Shown here in pieces: positions 6,687 to 38,482 of a stretch of 51,239 nt of DNA; the first letter of the stretch is position 1; every line of letters starts with the position of its first letter. Made by a program: the position numbers and the translations under genes. Under the pieces are notes generated by a model. The model had not been told where the DNA came from and made no database searches. It worked only from the letters and a program-made list of their open reading frames with translations. This DNA is from Polycladidibacter hongkongensis (GTDB lineage: Bacteria > Pseudomonadota > Alphaproteobacteria > Rhizobiales > Stappiaceae), in the NCBI RefSeq assembly GCF_001561995.1, contig NZ_LLWC01000037.1:1-51239 (forward strand), in the 5' to 3' direction.

Positions 6687-7475
6687 ATGGCGTTCTTAAA
6701 AGTACTTCGGGCAAGTCTGGTTTGGCTTTTACTGATTGTTATCATTGGAGGCGCTATTGCGGCTTGGCTAGCTAACTTCCAATTTGCCCGGCTTGGCTAT
6801 TTAGATTTCTCTCAGCTAGGGAGTATTTTCTTTTCTCAACCATCAAGCACCCCTGCAGAACGCGGAACATTTGGCGACAGCTTTGGGGCTGTGAACGCCT
6901 TATTCTCAGGACTAGCGTTCATCGGCCTTGCAATAGCGATCATCTTGCAGCGGCAAGAGCTGGCCATAGTAAAAGCCGAACGCGCGGACACCCAGAGGAT
7001 TCTTGAACAACAGACGCAAGAGCTGCAAGAAACGAAGAAGGCGCGACGATTAACTACTACTCTCTCGCAAATAAACTCATTTCGCAGCGATTTTTATATT
7101 CCAAGCGTTTCCGGAAATGACGAGCCGCGTGGTTTCGTCGCTATTGAGAAGGCTGTGTTTGCCTTAATCCGCAAAGATCAGACGGAAAACGTCGCATACC
7201 TTAAGCCATTATGCCAAATAATTATTACTTACCTCAAGGATATTAGCAGCGAAGCATCCATAGAACTTGATGAATACTCCAAGTTAAAACAGGCAGAAGA
7301 TCTTAGAAGCTCCTTATTCGACTGGGAAATCACGCTTCTTGTTTACTATGTCGCACACCATGGTAGCGCAAATGAATGTGTGATGATTGAAGAATTAAAT
7401 TTTGTCGACTCAGATTGCTATCCAGATATTATACCTTTCCTAGAAAAACTAAAAAGTAATCCTAGCTTTTCTTAG
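6687..7475 (+). CDS. putAbiC-like two-helix membrane protein (cargo, possible abortive infection)
   Basis: A 262-residue protein starting MAFLKVLRASLVWLLLIVII. I start it at 6687 because TAGGAGT lies 6 bases upstream. A first membrane helix spans residues about 9-32. The signature FGDSFGAVNALFSGLAFIG (about 67-85) runs into a second helix, then a cytoplasmic coiled coil (ERADTQRILEQQTQELQETK) and a C-terminal domain. The GxFGDxFGxxNxLFxxLAF pattern is that of the putative AbiC abortive-infection family. It lies between the portal and connector genes on the opposite strand, overlapping the portal end by 14 bases. That placement marks it as a lysogenic cargo gene, probably acting against superinfecting phages. 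Defence activity is inferred. Confidence 0.7.
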   Translation: MAFLKVLRASLVWLLLIVIIGGAIAAWLANFQFARLGYLDFSQLGSIFFSQPSSTPAERGTFGDSFGAVNALFSGLAFIGLAIAIILQRQELAIVKAERADTQRILEQQTQELQETKKARRLTTTLSQINSFRSDFYIPSVSGNDEPRGFVAIEKAVFALIRKDQTENVAYLKPLCQIIITYLKDISSEASIELDEYSKLKQAEDLRSSLFDWEITLLVYYVAHHGSANECVMIEELNFVDSDCYPDIIPFLEKLKSNPSFS

Positions 7476-9075
7476 CGTCTCTCTCCCCTTGTACGGCTCC
7501 ACCATTGGGGCCGCCATCGCCGCCCTTTGCTGGCTCAAACGGAACGGGGAGATCGGCCTCAACCAGTTGGTCGCGCTCTTCAATCCGCTCTTGCAGCAGC
7601 AAGTCATAATCCAGCCCTTCACGAGAGCACTCGCGCCGCAGGCTGGTGACCCCGTTTTGCAGCCGTAGTTTGCGCGCCCGCTCCGCTTTCTCATCATCTG
7701 CCGATGGTGCCGCAGGCCCGAGCACTTCCACTTGGCTTAGGTAGGTACGGTTTGCACGAAAAGCCTCATAGCCGCCGCGAAACGCGATCAGTCCGCGCCC
7801 GATTTGCTCATCCAGCCAGTTGGCGAACACGGTCTTGGTCAGCGGTGCCACGACCCGGTTGCGACGGCGCTTTACAATCGGCCAGATCGAGGCATAGGCC
7901 ATGCGCACGCTGGAATAGGTCTCGCCCTTGTGATCCATGGTCATGTTGGATGCGGTAACCCCGATGCGCCGCGCAACTTCGCGCAAGAGGTTCTGAAAAA
8001 ACGCGACATAGTGCGGATTAGGCGTTTTGCTCGAATGCAGCTCAAACTCTTCCCCCGGCGCTAAATGGTTGACCCGTACGCCAGAGGATAGATTGATCTC
8101 ACTTCCCGCCAGCTGCTCAAGCCGCGCAGTCCAGAGATCCTTCAGACCATTTGCCAGCTCTTCGTCGTCATCAAGAACCTGAAACGCCTCGAACACTTCT
8201 CGCGAAGCATCTGGGCTTTTTACCGTTGCCGCCATAATTGCCTGCGAAAGCGCTGTTGCAAGCGTGGCATTACCCAATTGCTCCTGATAGCCCAGATTGT
8301 TAAGCACAGCGGTTAGCAGCGGCACACCCCGCGAGGCATCAGGATTTTCCGAGCGGTCCAGCAGCTGCACAACATTGCAAAGCCCCGCACGATTGTGCGC
8401 AGGTATGTCATGATCGCTCAGGCCGTAAAGCCCTTCACTATCCTCGCGCATGAAACGATAACCTGTGTGCCGCCCGTTCTGATCCTTAAAAATCCCGTCC
8501 TGCAGGCCTATGAGTTTGTTCGTTTCCCACTTCAAAAGCCGCGGCGAAACAAGCGTTACTTTAGTCCCGCTTTCAATGCCGTAGCGCTGCCGTTCCCGTG
8601 CCCCTAAGTAGCTGAAAACACCAAAGGCCTCGCCCTTGCTCAGGAAGTAGCGGCAAACGCCATCATCCATTTCGGCAAGGGTCTTTTCGCCTGCCAAATC
8701 GACCTCTTTAGGATTTTCAGCATAGGCGCGAAACTTGCGCTCCACTTCCTGCGCAAACTCTCGCGCCTCCTTGTCACTGTATTCAAACTTTGACAGGTCG
8801 GGCTTGTAGTTAATCCGCAGCCCCTCGCCGATTGTATCAGTGATTACCTGATCGCAGGCGCCAGCGATCCAGCCGCTGTTATGTAGAAAATCCGTTGCCA
8901 AGGCGGAGGCCCGCAAAGCAGATGTGCGCACATCCTCCGAGCCTGCGCGATTGCTTACCACGCGCTGCGCAAGGACACCGCTGGCATCACCGCGTAAGTA
9001 ACGCATTTGCGCCCGTTTCAATCGTGCAGGCGCCGCAGCTTTGTTTGCACTGATGCGGGCTTTGGCTTTTGTCAT
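7462..9075 (-). CDS. Portal protein, lambda gpB family
   Basis: A 537-residue protein matching lambda gpB in size (533). Recognisable blocks are NSGWIAGACDQVITDTIGEG (about 67-86), LSKGEAFGVFSYL near residue 150, and VTASNMTMDHKGETYSSVRM near residue 385, all typical of the lambda-type portal family. Twelve copies form the DNA entry channel at the capsid vertex. It is coupled to the terminase by an ATGA overlap. Confidence 0.92.
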   Translation of the reverse strand: MTKAKARISANKAAAPARLKRAQMRYLRGDASGVLAQRVVSNRAGSEDVRTSALRASALATDFLHNSGWIAGACDQVITDTIGEGLRINYKPDLSKFEYSDKEAREFAQEVERKFRAYAENPKEVDLAGEKTLAEMDDGVCRYFLSKGEAFGVFSYLGARERQRYGIESGTKVTLVSPRLLKWETNKLIGLQDGIFKDQNGRHTGYRFMREDSEGLYGLSDHDIPAHNRAGLCNVVQLLDRSENPDASRGVPLLTAVLNNLGYQEQLGNATLATALSQAIMAATVKSPDASREVFEAFQVLDDDEELANGLKDLWTARLEQLAGSEINLSSGVRVNHLAPGEEFELHSSKTPNPHYVAFFQNLLREVARRIGVTASNMTMDHKGETYSSVRMAYASIWPIVKRRRNRVVAPLTKTVFANWLDEQIGRGLIAFRGGYEAFRANRTYLSQVEVLGPAAPSADDEKAERARKLRLQNGVTSLRRECSREGLDYDLLLQERIEERDQLVEADLPVPFEPAKGGDGGPNGGAVQGERDAKKS

Positions 9076-11099
9076 TTAAATCTGCTCCGAAATCGATTAT
9101 GCCCCCCTGTCTTGGGCGGCTTGCGCACATGACGCACCAATTCGCCTGATGGTTTGCGGCCCGCGGGCTTGGCAATATTGCTCTTGCTGCGCAGCCGGTT
9201 TGGCAACGAATGTCGCGCTGCGCTGGCATACACCATGCAGTCGAGAGCCTCGTTGCGTGCCCCCTCTTTCTTCAGCTCCCATAGCCGCACCTTGCGCCCA
9301 CCGACGTCCTTGGCGATGGCGTGCTCAGCCGTGAGCTGCGAAAAGTAATCAGCTGAAAGCCCTTCTGCTGGAAAGTGGATGGTGTTGGGGGATGGCGCGC
9401 CGTCTACATCCGGTTTGTTTTTGAGCTGGGCTGAGATTAAATCCTTGGCAGTATCGACGCCGACGATGTAAAGATGCTGCCCGCTGTTCTTGGTGCGGCT
9501 TGGTGTTTTTGGCCAAATCTGCCGCGCCCCGCTGCGATTGCTCATCCCTTTGGTTGCGTAAATACGGCGATATTTCCGCTTAGCGCAAAAGGCGTAAACA
9601 ATAGCTGCCCTGTGTCCCTGGCTGTCGATCGCCGCTGCCCTAATGCGTAAGGCGCGCCCATCTTCAGTTGTGTATGTTCGCCGAAGCGCATCGTCAAAGT
9701 CATCCCACACCCGTTTCCTAGAAGTGTCACCATCAAGCACAATGTGCTCGATCACCCACTGTTCCTCGTCGTTGCCATAGCCAATGACGGTCATTTCCAA
9801 ACGGTCGTCCTGCGTATCCGCCCCCGCAACCAATAGCCTGACGCCGGCAGGAAGTGCCTCCGCACTGTAGTTCTCAACCCGCTCCTCAAGCGCCTCGGCG
9901 CTCATGGAGAATTTCGCCTCCTTCACCACCTCGGCCAGCGCTGTGTTGACGAATTTCCGGTATAGCGTCGGGCGGTTGTAGCTGACCAGATATTCACGCA
10001 CCACATCCGGTAATGATTGGCGCGACGAGTACAGCTTTGAAACCTGAAACCCCGCATGCCCGTCATAGGGTGACTGCTTGCCACAGTCCGGGCAATGGGA
10101 GCGCCCCCGCTCATCCCAGTTCTCGCTATCACTCCATTCAAGCGGACGGTGGGTTTTACCGCAGCACACGAATGGTTTTGTTTGTTTCCACCCCGCATGC
10201 GACTCTTGCGCAATGGCCGCGATGGCCTTCTTACGCTCAGCCTCACTCCACCCAGTACCACACCCAGTGCAGTAGTAGCGCGCTGTATGTGGCAAGTGGT
10301 TGCCGTTCTCGTCCTTGTCCCACTGGATGGTTTCGCGTGACCAATAGAGCACTTGCTCTGTCTCGCAGTGCGGGCATTTGACAAAACACTTGCGCTGGTC
10401 GCTCGCCAGATACTCGCGGTAAATCACCGATGTTTCTTCACTTGAGGGCGAACAGGCGCGCACATTCAAGCGCCGGGACTTGAACGAGGACGAGCGCTCC
10501 TCTCCCAGCGCCAGCGGGTCGCCCATCCCTCCTGCATCGGCTGGGTATAGATCAACCTCATCGGCCAGTGTTATTCGCTTGGGGCGCGATGCCAGATCAA
10601 CCGGAGAGTTCGCGCCGACAAAATCAATAGCCCCGCCCGGAAACGCTTTGTGCTCAATTGTGTTCTCAGAGCCCCTCGCTTTTGGCGCGGGCACAAGCGC
10701 TGCTATCACCGGCGCCCCGCTTACGGCGGGCTGAAACCGCTCTTTAGAGAAGTTCGCCGCCAGCTTCTGCGTGGGCTGGATAAACAGGATAGACGCCGGA
10801 TCCTGATGGATATGGTAAAGTGCGGTGTTGTTCAAAAACTCGGTTTTCATCAGCTGCGTACAGGCCATCACGCTAATTTTCGTAGTTCCAGCCTCTGTCA
10901 CCGCCCGCATTGGTCCAATAGCAACGGGTACGCGGGAGGTTTTCCAGCGCCCCGGATTGGCTGAATTTTCCCTTGGTAGAAACCGGTGCGTATCCGCCCA
11001 CTGGACGAGGTCCAGTTGTGGCGGGGGCTTGAGCCCGTCATGCCGCGCCTTTACCAGTGCCCGCTTAAGGCTCTGCCTTGCTGTCAAATGCCAGTGCAT
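9072..11099 (-). CDS. Terminase large subunit, lambda GpA family
   Basis: A 675-residue packaging motor and endonuclease, close to lambda gpA (641). The N-terminal block has WADTHRFLPRENSANPGRW and an ATPase region (SVMACTQLMKTEFLNN, then ITLADEVDLYP with the Walker B aspartate). A zinc-ribbon insert CPHCETEQVLY...CTGCGTGW sits near residue 245. The nuclease part includes VAGADTQDDRLEMTVIGYG near 430. Its ATG overlaps the small-subunit gene by 35 bases, much like lambda nu1/A. Confidence 0.93.
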   Translation of the reverse strand: MHWHLTARQSLKRALVKARHDGLKPPPQLDLVQWADTHRFLPRENSANPGRWKTSRVPVAIGPMRAVTEAGTTKISVMACTQLMKTEFLNNTALYHIHQDPASILFIQPTQKLAANFSKERFQPAVSGAPVIAALVPAPKARGSENTIEHKAFPGGAIDFVGANSPVDLASRPKRITLADEVDLYPADAGGMGDPLALGEERSSSFKSRRLNVRACSPSSEETSVIYREYLASDQRKCFVKCPHCETEQVLYWSRETIQWDKDENGNHLPHTARYYCTGCGTGWSEAERKKAIAAIAQESHAGWKQTKPFVCCGKTHRPLEWSDSENWDERGRSHCPDCGKQSPYDGHAGFQVSKLYSSRQSLPDVVREYLVSYNRPTLYRKFVNTALAEVVKEAKFSMSAEALEERVENYSAEALPAGVRLLVAGADTQDDRLEMTVIGYGNDEEQWVIEHIVLDGDTSRKRVWDDFDDALRRTYTTEDGRALRIRAAAIDSQGHRAAIVYAFCAKRKYRRIYATKGMSNRSGARQIWPKTPSRTKNSGQHLYIVGVDTAKDLISAQLKNKPDVDGAPSPNTIHFPAEGLSADYFSQLTAEHAIAKDVGGRKVRLWELKKEGARNEALDCMVYASAARHSLPNRLRSKSNIAKPAGRKPSGELVRHVRKPPKTGGHNRFRSRFK

Positions 11100-11550
11100 T
11101 CAGGATTTCTCCAATTTTTAACGATAGTTTTTCTTCGATAAATGGCAGCTCTTGCATTTCCAGCTCATCAGCAATCTCACCCGACATTGCCAAGAAGTTC
11201 GCACGGATCATCGCGTATTCCTTCGCGACTTCGCCCACCACCATATCTATAGGCACCAAAGCTCCCCGCTGCTTCTCAACCTCGATCTCAGCAAGGTCCG
11301 CTGCCGCTGCATCGCGCCGTATCCGGACACGATCTTTTTCAGGCACCTGCTCCTCTAGCGCAGCCTGCAAACAACGCTCGCGCCAAGCGAACACCTGAGC
11401 GGAATTGAATTGAGTTGCCTTCCCGCGCCCTTCATCCAAGTGCACAGGACAGCCCCTTTTCACCCAATTTCGGATGGTCTGAGGGGTAACCCCGAACGTC
11501 TCCGACAGCTCTTTTTGGTTCAAAATCTTGCCCGTTGCCGTCTTCGGCAT
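11065..11550 (-). CDS. Terminase small subunit, Nu1-like
   Basis: A 161-residue protein with an N-terminal winged helix-turn-helix (LNQKELSETFGVTPQTIRNW, then VKRGCP) like that of lambda Nu1, which binds cos and recruits the large subunit. The middle is a coiled coil (DLAEIEVEKQRGALVPIDMV). Its length is close to lambda Nu1 (181). It is the first gene after the non-coding stretch in which a possible cos sequence is seen. Confidence 0.85.
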   Translation of the reverse strand: MPKTATGKILNQKELSETFGVTPQTIRNWVKRGCPVHLDEGRGKATQFNSAQVFAWRERCLQAALEEQVPEKDRVRIRRDAAAADLAEIEVEKQRGALVPIDMVVGEVAKEYAMIRANFLAMSGEIADELEMQELPFIEEKLSLKIGEILNALAFDSKAEP

Positions 11551-11829: not shown

Positions 11830-12444
11830 CTACCGTTTAAGCAGCCGTTTCCTCACCTCAAACTCTACCTCTCGCTTGAGGGAACTGCTCTCGCGTTCAA
11901 ATGCTTTGGCGCTCTCCCCAATAGTCATCTCTTCAGGGATACGAACGTCTGAGCGTACCTTGCGAAAGCCTGAGTGTCCCCACCAGCGTTTCCCGCTTGT
12001 CCTTGCTTGGAATACGGCGCCTTTGAATTGCGGCATGTCTTTACGGTTCGGGAAACGCCCGCCTTTTATCCACGCTTGCGGGTGCTTCTCTAATCGTCCA
12101 CGGGGCTTTGCCCCTACTCCGCCCCACTTGTATTCTTTGGCTTTGAAGTGCCGTAGGCTGATGTAGCCGCCATTTGTTATTAGGGTGTATTCGAGCCGTG
12201 CGCTTTTCCCGTTGTGACTGGCGTATGCTCTCTTTGCCTTGCCCAGAGCCTTTTTGATGGTTTTCTTCTCTAGCCCTGTTTGTTTGGGCAGTGTTTTTAT
12301 GACAGCGTTGCGTAGCCGTGTGCCGGTGCGGTTGATAGCTGCCCGATAGGCTCGCTCAGCCTCCGCCTTACTTCCCAGCCGCTCTGCCACTTTCCAGAAC
12401 TCGGTGAGCTTGTTATCGTCAATGCTGAGTTTGATGTGTGCCAT
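11830..12444 (-). CDS. Minor tail Z-like protein
   Basis: A 204-residue very basic protein. The segment YRAAINRTGTRLRNAVIKTL followed by PKQTGLEKKTIKKAL matches the style of the prophage minor tail protein Z family (lambda gpZ, 192 residues). It lies upstream of the terminase, away from the tail block, which is odd for a tail protein. It begins just downstream of the porin terminator. Confidence 0.6.
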   Translation of the reverse strand: MAHIKLSIDDNKLTEFWKVAERLGSKAEAERAYRAAINRTGTRLRNAVIKTLPKQTGLEKKTIKKALGKAKRAYASHNGKSARLEYTLITNGGYISLRHFKAKEYKWGGVGAKPRGRLEKHPQAWIKGGRFPNRKDMPQFKGAVFQARTSGKRWWGHSGFRKVRSDVRIPEEMTIGESAKAFERESSSLKREVEFEVRKRLLKR

Positions 12445-12458
12445 TAAACCGGTTCCAC

Positions 12459-12487
12459 AAAAAAACCCGCCGGGGATCTCCGGCGGG
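12459..12487 (-). terminator. Rho-independent terminator of the porin gene
   Basis: On the minus strand CCCGCCGG pairs with CCGGCGGG and is followed by seven T residues (A run at 12459-12465). It lies 39 bases after the porin stop and before the tail-Z-like gene. It isolates the porin as its own transcription unit. Confidence 0.9.
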
Positions 12488-12525
12488 CCATCGTTGGGTA
12501 TTAGTATTACTACAAGGTCAAAGCA

Positions 12526-14058
12526 TCAAAATGTGTACTGGACTCGCGCCCCGACCTTTATATTGTCGGTCTTCGTATTGGTCTTGTAGGCCATTTTGAG
12601 CACATCAATTCGACCTTTAACGGTAGAGTCTGTTCTCTCCCACCCTGCATCAAGCGCCAGAACCAAGCCATCAACGGGTGCGTATGAAAGCGAGCCATTA
12701 ACTCCATACTTTTTCTGATCGAAATCATAACCATATGGTATAGGATTAGCCCCATAGTACTTCTGGGTGTTTGTCCCGCTATGGGTTAGCTTTAGGTATG
12801 ATCCATCTAAGGCAAAGCTAACGTCATCAGTCAGAGCAAATTTAACCCCACCTGACAATTGATAGGCTTTCGCAGAATTGATGTTTGCAGCCGCTTTATT
12901 TGACACAGCGACCAATTCATCAGCTAGCCGAAGGATAGTAAGATAGTCACGTAGTCTGTCAGTGTTGTAAACCCCGCTTGGCCCAAGGGCTCTTACAAAA
13001 CCTTTGATAACGCGATTACTATTCATTGACACATGATTATTATCAATATGCAGCAATTCCGCTGCCTTTTTTTCTGCTTCCGTTGCCGCACCGATTGCTA
13101 TGTGGCGTGTCTTAATTGGCTTGCCTGGCCCCATGACGCGCACATTAAGCAGCCGAAGTGCGTCGATGGCCTCTTTGTTGTAGATTTGAGGCATGTCCTC
13201 AAACGCCGCCCTAGCCATCTGGTGGTACTGGGTTTCGTCTACACCAGCGGTAAATTTAGCGAGTTCCTTACTGTTGACGCCGACATATTCAACGGCATCT
13301 TTCGCGTAAGCTGCCCCAAGACCAACCTTAAACCCAGGCGCCACTTCTGCCAAATCGAATTCAAGCTCACCAATAACGGCATAGCCGGTTTTGCTGTTCT
13401 TATTCTGATGAGCAACACCAGCAACCTTGGCAAAGCCCCAGCCCTGGTTCGCTTCTAACGCGGCGACCAAGTCTACCTTATTATCCGCACCACCTGCTTT
13501 ATTAGAGTCTTCCAATGAAAGCGATGCACTAAGCCCACTACCGAACGACTGAGTGTAAGAAGCCTGTAGGACATCTTTATCGTACCAATTTTGCCCGACA
13601 ACGCCAATTTCAGAAAAACCGACAAATCCGTTGAATTTCGAGTCCGTGTACCCAGCTGTGAACTGGCCATTGCCAAAGCCGATCTGAACGTAGGTATCTT
13701 GAAACCCAACCCAACTTTTCGCAGCCTGATTGTGCTCTCCTCTAACTTCGACAAAGGTTTTGATTAAACCAAATTCGGTTTCCGTCATCGAACTCAAGAA
13801 CAAAGAGCCTCGGCTCTTGTATTTGTAGTTCTTCCCCTCGCCGCTGTTGGAAAGATTACCAGTTGTTGCGGTTGCACGAATGCGTCCGCCAACTTTAATG
13901 CAAGTGTCCTTGCCCGGAAGCTTAAAGAACCCGGCACCAAACGCATCACAAGCTTGAACATAATCAACAGGCTCGGCAACAACAGGCAAATCCGCTGCAT
14001 TTGCAGAAACCAACGAAACTGCGGCTAAAGGCGCAGCAAGTAGTATTTCAGGTTTCAC
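12526..14058 (-). CDS. Porin (Porin_2 type) carried by the prophage, with helical insert
   Basis: A 510-residue outer-membrane porin starting at a GTG (GAGAGGG upstream). The signal peptide ends near ANA-AD at residue 21. Mature N-terminus ADLPVVAEPVDYVQACDAFG and the DTCIKVGGRIRA strand are hallmarks of alphaproteobacterial Porin_2 proteins. It ends with the aromatic VGARVQYTF typical of the last barrel strand. Between two barrel strands, residues about 264-395 form a non-barrel, helix-rich insert (AIGAATEAEKKAAELLHIDN, RLRDYLTILRLADELVAVSN) that ordinary family members of 350-420 residues lack. It has its own terminator and an AT-rich upstream region, as expected of a phage conversion gene. 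Insert function is unknown. Confidence 0.85.
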   Translation of the reverse strand: MKPEILLAAPLAAVSLVSANAADLPVVAEPVDYVQACDAFGAGFFKLPGKDTCIKVGGRIRATATTGNLSNSGEGKNYKYKSRGSLFLSSMTETEFGLIKTFVEVRGEHNQAAKSWVGFQDTYVQIGFGNGQFTAGYTDSKFNGFVGFSEIGVVGQNWYDKDVLQASYTQSFGSGLSASLSLEDSNKAGGADNKVDLVAALEANQGWGFAKVAGVAHQNKNSKTGYAVIGELEFDLAEVAPGFKVGLGAAYAKDAVEYVGVNSKELAKFTAGVDETQYHQMARAAFEDMPQIYNKEAIDALRLLNVRVMGPGKPIKTRHIAIGAATEAEKKAAELLHIDNNHVSMNSNRVIKGFVRALGPSGVYNTDRLRDYLTILRLADELVAVSNKAAANINSAKAYQLSGGVKFALTDDVSFALDGSYLKLTHSGTNTQKYYGANPIPYGYDFDQKKYGVNGSLSYAPVDGLVLALDAGWERTDSTVKGRIDVLKMAYKTNTKTDNIKVGARVQYTF

Positions 14059-14482
14059 TAAAAGACCCTCTCAAGTAATAGATAAAATAGTAAAGTCTTA
14101 AAATAGCCATGCATATCACGCAAAGCTATTCACCTTTACTTATAGTTATCTATTATTAAGCATCTTCCACGCGTGTGCTTTTAAGCACTTCCACTACATC
14201 TACTTATATGATTGAATACAATTTACTACTTTAACTTTTTTCTATATACATAATTACCAAGAAGACCACTGAAGAAACAACAGGCAAGGCTTCTCATTAC
14301 AGCGCTTTGACTCCAAGCAGATTCTCAGTCCATAACAGTCCCCTGCTCAACTTATGCGTGAGTAGTTACGGTAGGGGCGGCATTAAGTTGTTTGGTGTCG
14401 GTCGGGCTGGTGTCGTCAAACTTTAGCCCGAGGTTAGAAGGTTCACACCTCCCTTCCCCTTGCCTTAACGCAAAGGGGAAAT
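14059..14482. promoter_or_regulatory. AT-rich divergent intergenic region with structured leader
   Basis: This 424-base stretch separates the leftward porin from the rightward membrane gene. The porin side (to about 14300) is much richer in A+T than the phage genes around it. I see no clean sigma-70 promoter there. The right side can fold: TCGGGCT at 14402-14408 pairs exactly with AGCCCGA at 14425-14431, and the start-proximal hairpin follows. Confidence 0.5.
14454..14480 (+). promoter_or_regulatory. Hairpin masking the ribosome-binding site of the 14483 gene
   Basis: TTCCCCTT (14454-14461) pairs perfectly with AAGGGGAA (14473-14480), extended by GC/GC around a 6-base loop with one bulged A. 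The Shine-Dalgarno bases AAGGGG are inside the stem, three bases before the ATG. Translation should be low unless the stem opens. This is inferred from sequence only. Confidence 0.65.
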
Positions 14483-15316
14483 ATGCTTAAAGAATATAAA
14501 AACAGTCCCGCGCCTGTTAAGTTGATTTACTGGCTTTTTGTGTTGTTCTTCTGTGCATTGGCGCTGCTAGGGATGTCCACAGTACTGTTGACCTTCGGGG
14601 TTTTGACAAAAAATTTCTTTAGCATTGAGAGTTTTGAAGTCTCAATGGCAACTTTTGCTCAGGTATTATCTGCAGTAGCTACATTAACACTTGCAATTCT
14701 GGGGTATAGGACGATCAGCTCAGGAGAGCGACAGTTTCGTACAATACAAGACCAACAAAGAAATTTCATTTTAAGTAAGCTCCCCCATGACATCAATTTG
14801 CTACTGAGCTGCCTTTACACAATAGAAGACCGTTATATTTGGTATATCTATGGTCAAAGAAATTATGAGAGAATTGAGTATCCCAAAACGTCTATTGAAG
14901 CCCTTTGTGAGTACGCAAAATTTCCTTCTCCTGACGCAGCTGCTGTTTCAAACCTAATTGCGCAGATTACAAGTATTTTTCCGACGATATACTGGAGATC
15001 CCTCAATATATATTCGGTTAAATGCTATTTCCCGGAATTCAACCCTGAGCAGGAGCTCATTGAAGCTGTCCACTGCGAGTTATTAATTCAGCTGCTGCAC
15101 CAGTTGTTGCACAATGCTACACCGCTGGACCTGAGGATTAGTGGCAGGGATATGCTAGAGCGTCAGTATAAATTTCATATTTGTAGGCAGACACTTCCTA
15201 GTAAAGACAAGGAAAAAGAGCATCTAGAAAGACTCTTTAATTCTAATGAATTTACTAAGCTTGCGAGCGAGCTAGATGGCGCTATCAAGGCCGCTAAAGC
15301 AGTATCCCCCCCCTAA
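14483..15316 (+). CDS. Two-helix membrane protein of unknown function (cargo)
   Basis: A 277-residue protein starting MLKEYKNSPAPVKLIYWLFV. Membrane helices are predicted at about 14-42 and 58-78 (FAQVLSAVATLTLAILGYRT), followed by ERQFRTIQDQQRNF and a long cytoplasmic domain. It is AT-richer than its neighbours and lies against the leftward phage operon, overlapping the end of the next gene by 4 bases. The architecture matches the putAbiC-like protein at 6687 without obvious sequence identity. A superinfection-exclusion or abortive-infection role is a guess from context. Confidence 0.6.
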   Translation: MLKEYKNSPAPVKLIYWLFVLFFCALALLGMSTVLLTFGVLTKNFFSIESFEVSMATFAQVLSAVATLTLAILGYRTISSGERQFRTIQDQQRNFILSKLPHDINLLLSCLYTIEDRYIWYIYGQRNYERIEYPKTSIEALCEYAKFPSPDAAAVSNLIAQITSIFPTIYWRSLNIYSVKCYFPEFNPEQELIEAVHCELLIQLLHQLLHNATPLDLRISGRDMLERQYKFHICRQTLPSKDKEKEHLERLFNSNEFTKLASELDGAIKAAKAVSPP

Positions 15317-15846
15317 GCCGCAAGTTTCCTCATTCTATCAGAATAACTACCCGATTTAGGCCGGTATTGTCCAACCAGAATTTCACTAGCTAGGGAAGGA
15401 TAAACCCTATCTTTACATAGACTTATCATTATATCTTCAAGTGCAATATTAACCCTATTGTAGCAGGTTTGCCGCGCAATACCCATTTGACTAATGAACT
15501 TACTTAGGCTCAACTTATAGGCATAGCAAAACGTCATGACCGCCAATGCCTTACGGGCTTCGGGCCGCTTTACCGCCGCCATCCAGCCCCACGTTTCTTC
15601 CATGCGCGCAATGGCCGCCGCGTCGGGCCTTGGCTGGTTACGCAGCTTCTTTTCCCCCTCAGTGAGTTTTTTAGCGCAGGCATTAAGAGCTGCCTCCCAT
15701 TGCTCTGCCTCACTTGGTGTTGTCTCGGGCCAGAATGTTGCAGGCTGGCCCGGCCTTACCCCACGCACCCGCTGATAACGCATCACAACCTGCGCTTCGA
15801 TGAGGCGATCGAGGATAACAGCTTCTGTGATCTGTAGTGGTGTCAT
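15313..15846 (-). CDS. DUF6362-like phage protein with HTH
   Basis: A 177-residue protein starting MTPLQITEAVILDRLIEAQV. I start it at 15846 with GAGGGC upstream. The GVRPGQPATFWPE segment, AAIARMEETWGWM and a C-terminal helix-turn-helix (KFISQMGIARQTCYNRVNIA) resemble a protein family common in alphaproteobacterial phages just before the packaging genes. A role as late-gene regulator or small packaging factor is possible but unproven. Confidence 0.55.
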   Translation of the reverse strand: MTPLQITEAVILDRLIEAQVVMRYQRVRGVRPGQPATFWPETTPSEAEQWEAALNACAKKLTEGEKKLRNQPRPDAAAIARMEETWGWMAAVKRPEARKALAVMTFCYAYKLSLSKFISQMGIARQTCYNRVNIALEDIMISLCKDRVYPSLASEILVGQYRPKSGSYSDRMRKLAA

Positions 15847-15862
15847 AAGTGCCCTCAAGGTT

Positions 15863-16072
15863 TCAAGGGGCCGGATCCAGCCCAGCCGTAATCGCTGCGC
15901 ATGCAAGCGCAATATGCAGGGGAATTTCTACTTTGCGCGATGGGTCGTCCCGCCTCGTGCCAGTCTCGTAAAGCCTGATGGTCTCTGGCGAAACCCCGAG
16001 GGCCTCAGCAGCCTGCGTTCTGCTTTTAAAGCCGCTTTCTTTACGCCAGTTTTTAAAGCTCTCGGGGGTCAT
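15863..16072 (-). CDS. Small XRE-type helix-turn-helix regulator
   Basis: A 69-residue protein starting MTPESFKNWRKESGFKSRTQ, then AAEALGVSPETIRLYETGTR, a clear Cro/C1-type helix-turn-helix. I use the ATG at 16072 (TAGGAA upstream). It is the third gene after a promoter flanked by two GGTAC-type palindromes and is a good candidate to bind them. That pairing is inferred. Confidence 0.75.
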   Translation of the reverse strand: MTPESFKNWRKESGFKSRTQAAEALGVSPETIRLYETGTRRDDPSRKVEIPLHIALACAAITAGLDPAP

Positions 16073-17880: not shown

Positions 17881-18519
17881 ATGCTTGTGCTTTTTAAGAG
17901 AAACGCCAAGGCAATTTTGGCTGGTGCATTGGCTGGACTGGTATCCACGATCGGGGTGCTTATGCTCGCCATATCGCCTAGCATAGAGGTGATCCAAGGC
18001 TGGATCGGAGACACAAGCGGCTGGGCTGCTGCAGCGGGCGCCTTGATCACAGTTGCGGTTATTTACAAACACAACAGGTTTGAAAAAGCCCGTTACTACA
18101 ATGAGAAGCTTTCTAAGCGCTTGCTGAATGCGGACGATGTCGAGTTTATGAATTGTTATATTACGCCTACAGTTGACCTCATCGAAGATCAAATGGGGAG
18201 AGAATGGAGAGAGCAAGACTACAGGAAAGCTGAAAACAACATTCTTAAAATCAAAGAGCATCTTGATAAGATTACCGCTGATAAATTTACCTCTCATTAT
18301 ACATTTACCGATTGTAAAATTCGGATTGATGAACTCTGTGAAAATATTCAAAAAACGAGGAATACTTACGGCCCCGAAAAACAACACCTTGCCTATGGGT
18401 TTCAGAACCACCTTGCTTCCAGAGCGAGAAGCACAATGAATGATCTGGGGCACTCCTTTAACAATGAGCTTAAAACCCAAGAGAAATACCGCCAGTTTGT
18501 TGATCGCCACCTGCTTTAA
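17881..18519 (+). CDS. Two-helix membrane protein of unknown function (cargo)
   Basis: A 212-residue protein starting MLVLFKRNAKAILAGALAGL. The ATG at 17881 has GAGGGG upstream; an open frame extends 118 codons further but only inside the helicase gene on the other strand. Two membrane helices (about 11-32 and 44-62) precede an acidic and lysine-rich cytoplasmic domain with likely coiled coils (YRKAENNILKIKEHLDKI). It is the third gene of this layout in the prophage. It stands between helicase and methylase genes on the opposite strand, with codon use poorer in GC. Function unknown; defence is inferred from context. Confidence 0.6.
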   Translation: MLVLFKRNAKAILAGALAGLVSTIGVLMLAISPSIEVIQGWIGDTSGWAAAAGALITVAVIYKHNRFEKARYYNEKLSKRLLNADDVEFMNCYITPTVDLIEDQMGREWREQDYRKAENNILKIKEHLDKITADKFTSHYTFTDCKIRIDELCENIQKTRNTYGPEKQHLAYGFQNHLASRARSTMNDLGHSFNNELKTQEKYRQFVDRHLL

Positions 18520-35840: not shown

Positions 35841-35924
35841 TGAGCGGGAGGGCGGTGAATACAAAACCCGGAAGGGGAATAAACCCGCCTGACTTGGTAC
35901 AGGTTTCGAACCTCCCGCTCACCA
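35841..35924 (+). ncRNA. tRNA-like structured element upstream of the antirepressor
   Basis: TGAGCGGGAGG (35841-35851) pairs perfectly over 11 bases with CCTCCCGCTCA (35911-35921), followed by CCA at 35922-35924. GGTTTCGAACC just before the 3' strand looks like a T-arm. CCTG/CAGG makes a further hairpin (35888-35903). The arms do not fit standard tRNA lengths, and I cannot place an anticodon. It may be a decayed tRNA or tRNA mimic; a 5'-UTR control element of the antirepressor is also possible. Confidence 0.45.
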
Positions 35925-35987
35925 GTGGGTCGTCGAAAGCCCTTTGTGAGTGGTCCTTAAATGCCCACTACCAAGGAGGCTTTTGAT

Positions 35988-37125: not shown

Positions 37126-37305
37126 ATGACAAGCAAATCACTTTTCAAGCAACGAGACATAGAGCGTGCTGTAAAAGGCGCAGAAAAAGGCGGTCTCGCT
37201 GTCAAAACCATTGAAATAAAGAGCGACGGGACAATTCGTCTAAGCAGCGATGCGTCCGAGAACAGCAATGACAACAAGCCATTGCCCAAGGTCGCCTCCA
37301 TATGA
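37126..37305 (+). CDS. Small basic protein coupled to integrase, excisionase-like position
   Basis: A 59-residue protein starting MTSKSLFKQRDIERAVKGAE. The layout (a helix with Lys/Arg, then AVKTIEIKSDGTIRL) matches small proteins commonly found just before integrases in alphaproteobacterial prophages. It overlaps the integrase start by ATGA. A role in excision control is inferred from position. Confidence 0.6.
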   Translation: MTSKSLFKQRDIERAVKGAEKGGLAVKTIEIKSDGTIRLSSDASENSNDNKPLPKVASI

Positions 37306-38336
37306 CAAAACAACGAAAGCGCCTGCCCTATGTGTTGCGCGAGGTCGCGCGGGGGCGGGTGTTTTGGTATTTTCGCAAGGGGAAAGGCAAGCGGGTGCGA
37401 CTGCCCGGCAGGTACGGGTCTCCGGAGTTTATGGCGGCGTACGACGAGGCAATTAGCCTGCCGACAGTAGCGCAGAAAAAGACCAAAAGAGCGCCAGAGA
37501 CACTGGGCTGGTTAATCGACCAGTATGTATCTAGCCCAGAATTTGGAGAGATGAAGCGCAGCACGCGAGCCGTAAAAAGTAGCTTCCTCAAAAAAATCGC
37601 AGAAGAATCCGGACACCATCCGCTCGACGCAATCAACTCCTCCACAATTCGCGGGGGGCGTGATAAGCGAGCCCACACGCCATCGGCTGCAAACAATTTT
37701 CTGAAACACCTGTCGGCGATGTACCGTTGGGCCATCGAAAATGAAGCAATAACATCAGTTACCACGAACCCGACGCGCGACGTACCCCGCTTAAAAATCA
37801 AATCTGAAGGACATCACACGTGGACCCCGGAGGAGATTGAGCAGTACCGTGCTCGCTGGCCGCTCGGCACGCGCGAACGTTTGGCGCTAGAGGTTCTCGC
37901 CTTCACCGGTCTGCGCCGTGGGGATGTTTGCCGGGTCGGCCCCGCGCACGTGAAGAACAAAATCCTGTCGATAAAAACGGAAAAGTATGGCGTGGAAGTG
38001 CACCTCCCCATCCTCCCCGCATTGCAGGAGGCAATAGACGCGACCCCGCACGGCTCGACATTCATTACGACCGCTAAGGGGTTGCCGTATGTGAAAGAAA
38101 GTTTTGGGAATTGGTTTGGCGAGTGCTGCGCGGCGGCAGGTGTGCCAGGGCGCGCCCACGGCATGCGTAAAGCTGCGGCAACTTTGGCGGCAGAAAACGG
38201 GGCGACAGACTCGCAGCTGAAGGCAATTTTTGGCTGGACCACTGACGAAATGCCAACGCTCTACACCCGCAAGGCTAGCCGTAAAAAAATGGCTGGGGAA
38301 GCAATAAAAACGCTAGAGAGAACCCCTAACACTTAA
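37302..38336 (+). CDS. int: Tyrosine recombinase integrase
   Basis: A 344-residue integrase. Catalytic set: Arg205 in GLRRGDV, Lys228 in KTEKYG, His286-x-x-Arg289 in HGMRK, Trp312 in FGWTT in place of the usual His, and the nucleophile Tyr321 in TLYTRK. An N-terminal basic strand region and a SAM-like core-binding domain precede it. It points at the tRNA-Ser gene 56 bases downstream, the likely attachment site. Confidence 0.93.
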   Translation: MTKQRKRLPYVLREVARGRVFWYFRKGKGKRVRLPGRYGSPEFMAAYDEAISLPTVAQKKTKRAPETLGWLIDQYVSSPEFGEMKRSTRAVKSSFLKKIAEESGHHPLDAINSSTIRGGRDKRAHTPSAANNFLKHLSAMYRWAIENEAITSVTTNPTRDVPRLKIKSEGHHTWTPEEIEQYRARWPLGTRERLALEVLAFTGLRRGDVCRVGPAHVKNKILSIKTEKYGVEVHLPILPALQEAIDATPHGSTFITTAKGLPYVKESFGNWFGECCAAAGVPGRAHGMRKAAATLAAENGATDSQLKAIFGWTTDEMPTLYTRKASRKKMAGEAIKTLERTPNT

Positions 38337-38351
38337 CCCGTTAGGGGTTTT
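38321..38351 (+). terminator. Integrase terminator
   Basis: AACCCCTAAC (38321-38330) pairs exactly with GTTAGGGGTT (38340-38349) and is followed by TT. The integrase stop TAA sits in the loop. Confidence 0.8.
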
Positions 38352-38392
38352 GGTGATAAATTTCTTTTTAAATTCAATGCTTTGGAAATTGA

Positions 38393-38482
38393 TGGCGGAC
38401 ACGGAGGGATTCGAACCCTCGAGACCCTTCCGGGCCTACTCCCTTAGCAGGGGAGCGCCTTCGACCACTCGGCCACGTGTCC
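38393..38482 (-). tRNA. tRNA-Ser(GCU), prophage attachment site
   Basis: A complete class II tRNA of 90 bases with encoded CCA, long variable arm and anticodon loop CTGCTAA flanked by CTCCC/GGGAG (anticodon GCU). The acceptor stem is GGACACG/CGTGTCC. Its 3' end faces the integrase, the usual geometry when a prophage integrates and restores the tRNA. The other att copy must be left of the window; I found no repeat of the 3' end inside it. Confidence 0.95.

What the first reader, a model, noticed from the sequence alone, without database searches (positions are those of the whole stretch)
12459..14058. Prophage-borne porin with a helical insert of about 130 residues and its own terminator
A Porin_2-type barrel in a phage late region is unusual. 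Lambdoid phage PA-2 is a known precedent for a phage-encoded porin that alters receptor display. Here the barrel contains a helix-rich insert at residues about 264-395. A strong terminator separates it from the tail gene. The insert could be a surface domain that blocks phage adsorption or changes permeability.
Basis: partly seen in the sequence, partly recalled or inferred. Interest (0 to 1): 0.75.

Follow-up and report, generated by a model that had tools for sequence, protein, structure and literature searches.

The report
Prophage copy of a host porin
A virus lying dormant in a marine Pseudovibrio bacterium carries its own version of the bacterium's outer-membrane pore protein, with a large unique surface loop, which probably changes what the cell surface shows to other viruses or lets through.

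Summary
A 510-residue Porin_2 gene (12526-14058, minus strand) sits in a prophage, with a strong terminator at 12459-12489 before the late genes. It is modelled as a 16-strand barrel; about 130 residues are inserted between strands 11 and 12 (loop L6, outside by inference). The insert is helical but modelled at low confidence.

The interpretation needs correcting. The same genome (a Pseudovibrio; size and GC fit P. hongkongensis) has seven tandem porin genes plus one single one, and 4 of these 8 have long inserts in the same loop. None of 58 porins from 15 other genomes of the genus has one. A tree built without the insert puts the prophage porin in this host family (100/97), so it came from the host lineage. 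Its insert sequence is an orphan (net charge +3 against -4 to -11).

It occupies a variable cargo spot: 7 of 7 sister prophages with that spot in view carry other genes there. Best reading: a phage-borne lysogenic-conversion porin working like PA-2's Lc porin, with an altered surface loop. Expression and function were not testable here. A new variant of a known kind, of moderate interest. Porin_2 genes also occur on several other viral contigs.

The parts
12526..14058 (-). Porin_2 gene, 510 aa, GTG start
   Evidence: AlphaFold2 16-strand barrel
13993..14058 (-). probable signal peptide, residues 1-22 (cut before or near ADLP); 27-36% identical to the same stretch of the nine relatives compared
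   Evidence: sequence; cleavage site inferred
13300..13905 (-). barrel strands 1-11 (residues 52-253); the 22-residue gap between strands 5 and 6 (140-161) is the likely constriction loop L3
   Evidence: L3 inferred from position
12874..13269 (-). insert in loop L6, residues 264-395, helical at low confidence, net charge +3 (counted on residues 261-394)
12529..12870 (-). barrel strands 12-16 (residues 397-510), ending in ...QYTF
12459..12489 (-). intrinsic terminator of the porin gene
14059..14482 (.). 424-bp intergenic stretch between the porin and the divergent ORF, GC 0.40; would hold the porin leader
   Evidence: promoter-like sites in the region no more than chance
14483..15316 (+). 277-aa cargo protein with two N-terminal hydrophobic segments, GC 0.41, no match in 60 related genomes
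15313..15912 (-). DUF6362 protein: right border of the cargo spot, conserved in sister prophages
11830..12444 (-). neck/tail-completion protein (PHROG 27): left border of the cargo spot
11065..11550 (-). terminase small subunit
9072..11099 (-). terminase large subunit
7462..9075 (-). portal protein
37302..38336 (+). integrase, next to tRNA-Ser(gct) at 38393-38482

Best explanation
A lysogenic-conversion cargo gene. The prophage (or an ancestor) captured a porin from the host lineage's family of long-loop porins, and it now sits in the prophage's variable cargo spot with its own terminator. In the lysogen the protein should be exported, insert as a 16-strand general porin and show a different L6 surface segment. 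Most likely it changes which porin loops the cell displays, so that phages (and perhaps other agents) that recognise host porins adsorb less well; it will also add to or alter diffusion through the outer membrane. Shown by computation: fold, loop position, host-lineage kinship, cargo-spot location, terminator, leader without the array's motif. Inferred: expression in the lysogen, export, trimer formation, the effect on adsorption.
For: Fold and family. Clade with two own-array porins 100/97, insert columns excluded. Same loop enlarged in 4 of 8 other porins of the genome, 0 of 58 in 15 other genomes of the genus, 0 of 13 outside it. Insert not significantly like the array inserts and opposite in net charge, while the barrel segments stay 35-73% identical to the four long-loop array porins. 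Cargo spot: 7 of 7 distinct sister prophages with the spot in view carry other genes there (methyltransferases, proteins with one or two hydrophobic N-terminal segments, small secreted-looking or toxin-like proteins, the last two by eye), none a porin. GC of the cargo block 0.48 and 0.41 against 0.56 in the late genes. Own terminator. Porins as receptors: passages of PMC8594841 and PMC4138488. Works-like precedent: the PA-2/DLP12 phage porin transcript gives the IpeX RNA, which lowers OmpC and OmpF (passages of the reviews PMC12197685 and PMC8065619; the primary paper asked for was not held).
Against: No expression data. Promoter-like sites around the gene are not above chance (9 found, 5.5 expected, sd 2.6). 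Receptors of Pseudovibrio phages were not looked into. The insert is modelled poorly, so a folded surface domain is not shown, and the model is a monomer. Divergence of the insert is not special to the phage copy: 4 of 6 pairs of array inserts are also unlike each other. The low GC is partly a porin trait: array porins have 0.50-0.58, and the GC at third positions (0.46) lies within the array's range (0.43-0.62). The leader comparison is weak: array leaders share little with each other too, beyond one 24-bp pair and the motif before the start codon. The tree program flagged the letter make-up of the two nearest array rows. Cargo in this spot may serve purposes other than exclusion.
Confidence: 0.52

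Rival explanations
1. Nutritional or permeability cargo: the prophage porin mainly changes diffusion of charged solutes or antimicrobials and gives the lysogen a growth or stress advantage; exclusion of phages is incidental.
For: General-porin fold. Whole-protein net charge +1 while the eight other porins of the genome run from -5 to -34 (unprocessed sequences), so ion selectivity could differ. Other phage contigs also carry Porin_2 genes, some beside replication and metabolism genes.
Against: The strongest difference from the host copies lies in an outer loop, not in the predicted constriction loop; the neighbours in the cargo spot look more like exclusion or toxin-type genes than metabolic ones (by eye). 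Pore charge was not computed.
Confidence: 0.27
2. Passenger gene: a host porin picked up by chance, silent or without effect in the lysogen.
For: Only this prophage of the family has it (0 of 7 sisters); no promoter was recognised above chance.
Against: Intact 510-codon frame with conserved barrel, signal peptide and C-terminal Phe despite a long branch (0.44 against 0.10 and 0.12 in its two nearest relatives); it has a good terminator.
Confidence: 0.13
3. Lytic-cycle or virion role, for example preparing the envelope for lysis or DNA exit.
For: Same strand as, and directly ahead of, the late operon.
Against: Terminator before the late genes; absent from all 7 distinct sister prophages that share the late operon; related to host porins.
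Confidence: 0.05
4. Assembly artefact: a chromosomal porin misjoined into a phage contig.
For: The host has eight other porin genes and the assembly is a draft of 38 contigs.
Against: The gene is flanked on both sides, in the same contig, by phage genes in the order conserved in sister prophages; its DNA shares no exact run longer than 19 bp with any array gene, so there is no repeat on which to misassemble. The IMG/VR copy appears to be the same assembly and is not independent.
Confidence: 0.02

Closest known systems
Phage PA-2 Lc porin / NmpC of the DLP12 prophage (Escherichia coli)
   Same: An outer-membrane porin encoded in a temperate phage (porin transcript and its IpeX RNA: passages of PMC12197685 and PMC8065619); position near the start of the late region is recalled.
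   Different: Another porin family (recalled), not Porin_2; no 130-residue L6 insert (recalled); an effect on host porins is reported there and untested here.
Porin_2 family (PF02530): the host's own tandem porin array
   Same: Same family, same barrel, same enlarged loop L6 in four array copies; nearest relatives.
   Different: Location in a prophage; orphan insert of opposite net charge; different signal peptide and no array leader motif.
Phage porins in BFVD: A0A6J5L4P1 (OmpC-like, uncultured Caudovirales phage), A0A8S5S2G8 (phosphate-selective type, Siphoviridae sp. ctBLh2)
   Same: Barrel porins on phage sequences.
   Different: 11% and 9% identity in the structural alignment; their context was not examined.
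Porin_2 genes on IMG/VR contigs L117, L118, L120, L129
   Same: Porin_2 on viral contigs.
   Different: 26-29% identical to the window porin over 264-307 residues; sit with a 374-residue protein and a radical-SAM/SPASM protein; not in this prophage family.

Membership tests
Porin_2 (PF02530) | Score over the curated cut-off | tested here: met
   136.8 bits against 22, residues 23-263, profile 1-261 of 357
Porin_2 (PF02530) | 16-strand barrel closed by a C-terminal strand ending in an aromatic residue | tested here: met
   16 strands in the AlphaFold2 model (prediction); sequence ends ...QYTF
Porin_2 (PF02530) | Inward-folded constriction loop L3 | tested here: inconclusive
   22-residue gap between strands 5 and 6; inward folding not inspected
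Porin_2 (PF02530) | Trimer in the outer membrane | not testable with these tools
   monomer model only
PA-2 Lc-type phage porin (functional class) | Porin gene inside a temperate phage, at the border of the late region | tested here: met
PA-2 Lc-type phage porin (functional class) | Own transcription unit, expressed in the lysogen | tested here: inconclusive
   terminator present; promoter scan no better than chance; no expression data
PA-2 Lc-type phage porin (functional class) | Lowers or replaces host porins that serve as phage receptors | not testable with these tools
   needs wet work
PA-2 Lc-type phage porin (by descent) | Sequence kinship with the enterobacterial porin family | tested here: not met
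   only Porin_2 reported at E up to 1 in Pfam; groups with Pseudovibrio porins (no enterobacterial porin was put in that tree)
Host long-loop porin clade | Groups with array porins when the insert is left out | tested here: met
   100/97 with two array genes; 100/99 with the six-row clade
Host long-loop porin clade | Insert sequence alignable with the array inserts | tested here: inconclusive
   z 2.2 and 1.9 (23 and 32 of 500 shuffles reach the score), 0.5 and 0.2, against 10.8 and 4.6 for two array pairs; the other four array pairs score no better than shuffles

The most novel reading that the evidence does not exclude
This Pseudovibrio lineage diversifies one surface loop (L6) across a tandem porin array, and its prophages join in: they pick up long-loop porins and replace the L6 domain to re-mask the cell. 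The L6 insert would then be a fast-changing receptor-masking domain shared between host and phage, and Porin_2 genes would be a recurrent, undescribed class of phage cargo.
Probability: 0.18. Interest if true: 0.62.

Novelty: new variant of a known kind. Interest (0 to 1): 0.42.

Why it matters
Outer-membrane porins serve as phage receptors in Gram-negative bacteria (passages of PMC8594841 and PMC4138488). A prophage that carries a host-derived porin with a changed surface loop, in a species that has itself enlarged the same loop in four other porin genes, offers a testable case of host and phage working on one surface structure. The listings of my ten paper searches showed no paper on Porin_2 genes in phages; that library holds only openly licensed papers, and I opened passages of nine of them.

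Tried and rejected
Phage-specific insert: rejected, because the host's own porins have inserts in the same loop.

Recombination donor for the host array: unlikely. The longest exact DNA run shared with any array gene is 19 bp; of 7 blastn pieces against the array locus, 3 (244-758 columns) are 64-67% identical and 4 short N-terminal ones (74-134 columns) 78-86%, while array genes share exact runs up to 56 bp with each other.

CRISPR target: the array of the closest species held (G001 = P. stylochi by equal contig lengths; cas1 found; 'type I-C' is from passages of PMC5959193) was read from 15 exact repeat copies: 14 slots, one of 99 bases that probably holds two spacers round a changed repeat. 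No spacer matches the window, the host porin array or two sister prophages over more than 13 exact bases, which is chance.

Known defence families: the window porin, the neighbouring ORF and six cargo proteins of two sister prophages have no PADLOC match better than E 0.002.

Insert elsewhere: in 87 genomes of the family the insert alone finds itself; 36 of 87 have some match at E up to 1, the next best at 0.024. In solved structures the best is E 1.5; the whole porin has none up to E 1 by sequence.

Known phages: tblastn of the porin (E up to 0.01) and of the host's single porin (E up to 1) against 50,697 phage records found nothing. Plasmids: 265 of 72,556 records hold a relative, all under 60% identity (the 20 listed at 26-36%), none over 80% of the query.

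Attachment site: no direct repeat of 14 bases or more between 38300-38482 and the rest of the window; the left prophage end seems to lie beyond the contig.

Full report
What is there. The frame 12526-14058 on the minus strand encodes 510 residues beginning with a probable signal peptide and VDYVQACDAFGAGFFKLPGKDTCIKVGGR, a stretch largely shared with the relatives aligned here. Pfam Porin_2 matches residues 23-263 at E 1.5e-39. Residues 397-510 return to porin sequence and end in QYTF. Between them lie about 130 residues without a match in Pfam (E up to 1) or PHROGs (E up to 0.01), both searched with the whole protein.

Structure. AlphaFold2 with 25 aligned sequences gave mean pLDDT 79.3 and pTM 0.72: 16 strands, block pLDDT mostly 88-97 over the barrel (lower in a few loops), and between strand 11 (244-253) and strand 12 (397-408) seven helices from 256 to 391, block pLDDT 45-68 between 271 and 390. 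By parity the gap between strands 11 and 12 lies on the same side as the gap between 5 and 6, where porins have the loop L3 that folds in from outside; so the insert is loop L6, outside (inference from the strand list). Foldseek finds general porins of the PDB at 7-13% identity among the listed matches (DcaP 2.8e-12, Omp38, PorB, Rhodobacter blastica porin) and, in the viral library, OmpC-like and phosphate-selective porins from phage sequences. The insert had no homologous partners in the alignment used, so its fold is open.

Setting. The window is one whole contig of a 3.74-Mb draft. The eight named loci found with the porin alignment are all Pseudovibrio; genome size and the window's GC (0.536) fit P. 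hongkongensis UST20140214-015B as tabulated in PMC5959193 (3,746,600 bp, 53.29%; passages seen), which is an inference. From the contig start to about 38.4 kb it is a prophage: baseplate, capsid, decoration, protease, portal, terminase, neck, then the porin, then DUF6362, helicase, antirepressor, and an integrase beside tRNA-Ser. IMG/VR holds the same prophage.

Sister prophages. Terminase relatives of 67-68% identity exist in three other genomes of the genus, and six IMG/VR contigs have relatives of 65-67% (the list also held this prophage and two at 36-38%). L098 and L110 are the same stretch, and in L100 the contig starts just before the neck gene, so the spot is not in view. That leaves 7 distinct sisters with the spot in view: L098/L110, L099, L108, L109, L111, L112, L113. 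They are not independent samples: L109 and L113 are 96% identical through the spot, and L108 and L110 share part of it. Between DUF6362 and the neck protein they hold other cargo: frames similar to the window's DNA-methyltransferase gene (L098's confirmed by Pfam), small proteins with signal-like N-termini, a RelE-like small protein (both by eye), and proteins with one or two hydrophobic N-terminal segments; further two-segment proteins lie next door, between neck and small terminase. tblastn with the 84 collected porin rows gave no hit in 9 of 9 non-own loci. The window's cargo block is poorer in GC (porin 0.476, ORF 14483 0.414) than the late genes (0.559); the host's array porins have 0.50-0.58, so part of this is a porin trait.

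The host's porins. The same genome has seven tandem porin genes at C34:33-46 kb and one at C22; two further weak Porin_2 hits are other small outer-membrane-type proteins by eye. Between fixed alignment columns around the insert, 4 of these 8 have 102-167 residues, the other 4 have 16-41, and the window porin has 143. Of 58 porins from 15 other genomes of the genus none exceeds 35, and of 13 from outside the genus none exceeds 39 (4 frames under 300 aa dropped; only porins in the regions I fetched are counted). The tree of 79 rows without the insert columns puts the window porin with two array porins (100/97) and these within a clade of the five long-loop porins plus one short-loop P. stylochi porin (100/99); the program flagged the letter make-up of those two array rows. 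So the gene came from this host lineage. P. stylochi's short loop inside the clade means loss or repeated gain.

How the copy differs. Its insert is not significantly like the array inserts (best z 2.2 and 1.9), although its last 14 residues align at 7 of 14 identities with one of them. Among the array inserts, two pairs are clearly related (z 10.8 and 4.6) and four pairs are not, so divergence of this loop is not unique to the phage copy. Net charge of the insert is +3, the array's -4 to -11. Four array genes have the motif AAGGTCAGGA before the start codon and 84-96% identical first 126 bases; the window gene has neither (63-70% to the six array genes compared). Further upstream the array leaders share little with each other as well.

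Mechanism. Most likely lysogenic conversion: an extra porin with a changed surface loop. PA-2 in E. coli is the functional precedent; in reviews I saw that its porin transcript yields IpeX RNA, which lowers OmpC and OmpF (PMC12197685, PMC8065619; passages). Whether this gene is expressed, what it excludes and what passes through it are untested. The permeability rival is the next most likely.

Other Porin_2 genes on viral contigs. A scan with a broader alignment gave 13 loci, one of them this prophage. I looked at family matches of neighbours for six of the other 12: L117 (phage primase, ribonucleotide reductase), L120 (exonuclease, PhoH, single-strand binding protein), L121 (tape measure), L128 (tail fibre / gpJ-like), L123 (tail protein), L122 (minor tail protein). 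L117, L118, L120 and L129 share a set of three genes, porin - 374-residue protein - radical-SAM/SPASM protein, at 56-72% identity (89% between the porins of L120 and L129); in L117 another frame lies between the last two, and the radical-SAM domain was tested in L117 and L120 only. In L122, L123, L124, L126 and L127 the porin lies within about 1.3 kb of a contig end and could be host flank. So phage-borne Porin_2 is probably not confined to this prophage.

Verdict. Real, correctly located, and well explained as a host-derived cargo porin; the long loop is a host trait, its sequence in the phage copy is its own. A new variant of a known kind.

Noticed in passing
L117:9906-14999, L118:263-4324, L120:9992-14082, L129:9992-14316: A conserved gene set on IMG/VR contigs (20.7 kb, 5.2 kb, 99.5 kb and 167.8 kb): Porin_2 porin, a 374-residue protein (no Pfam match in L117 and L120), and a radical-SAM/SPASM protein; phage replication genes lie nearby in L117 and L120. 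Function unknown.
   Followed up: partly
L128:3284-4411: Porin_2 gene about 3 kb from a gpJ-like tail-fibre gene on a 40-kb viral contig, a position that recalls that of lom in lambda (recalled).
   Followed up: partly
window 14483-15316, and L098:10928-11782, L098:15324-16148, L112:4186-5001: The prophage family repeatedly carries 271-284-residue proteins with one or two hydrophobic N-terminal segments in or beside this spot; the window and L098 proteins have no PADLOC match at E up to 0.1: candidate exclusion proteins.
   Followed up: partly
L013 (G000:C34:31000-48500): Seven tandem Porin_2 genes, all on one strand, with 388-697 bp between them; three share nearly identical first 126 bases (94-96%), which looks like gene conversion of the 5' ends while the loop L6 inserts differ.
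   Followed up: partly
window 35843-35927: Rfam sRNA-Xcc1 (RF02221), 71.1 bits against a gathering score of 53, inside the prophage ahead of the antirepressor gene.
   Followed up: no
window 18000-18500: A second low-GC dip (0.43) holding a plus-strand frame with one hydrophobic segment, against the direction of the surrounding replication genes; probably further cargo.
   Followed up: no
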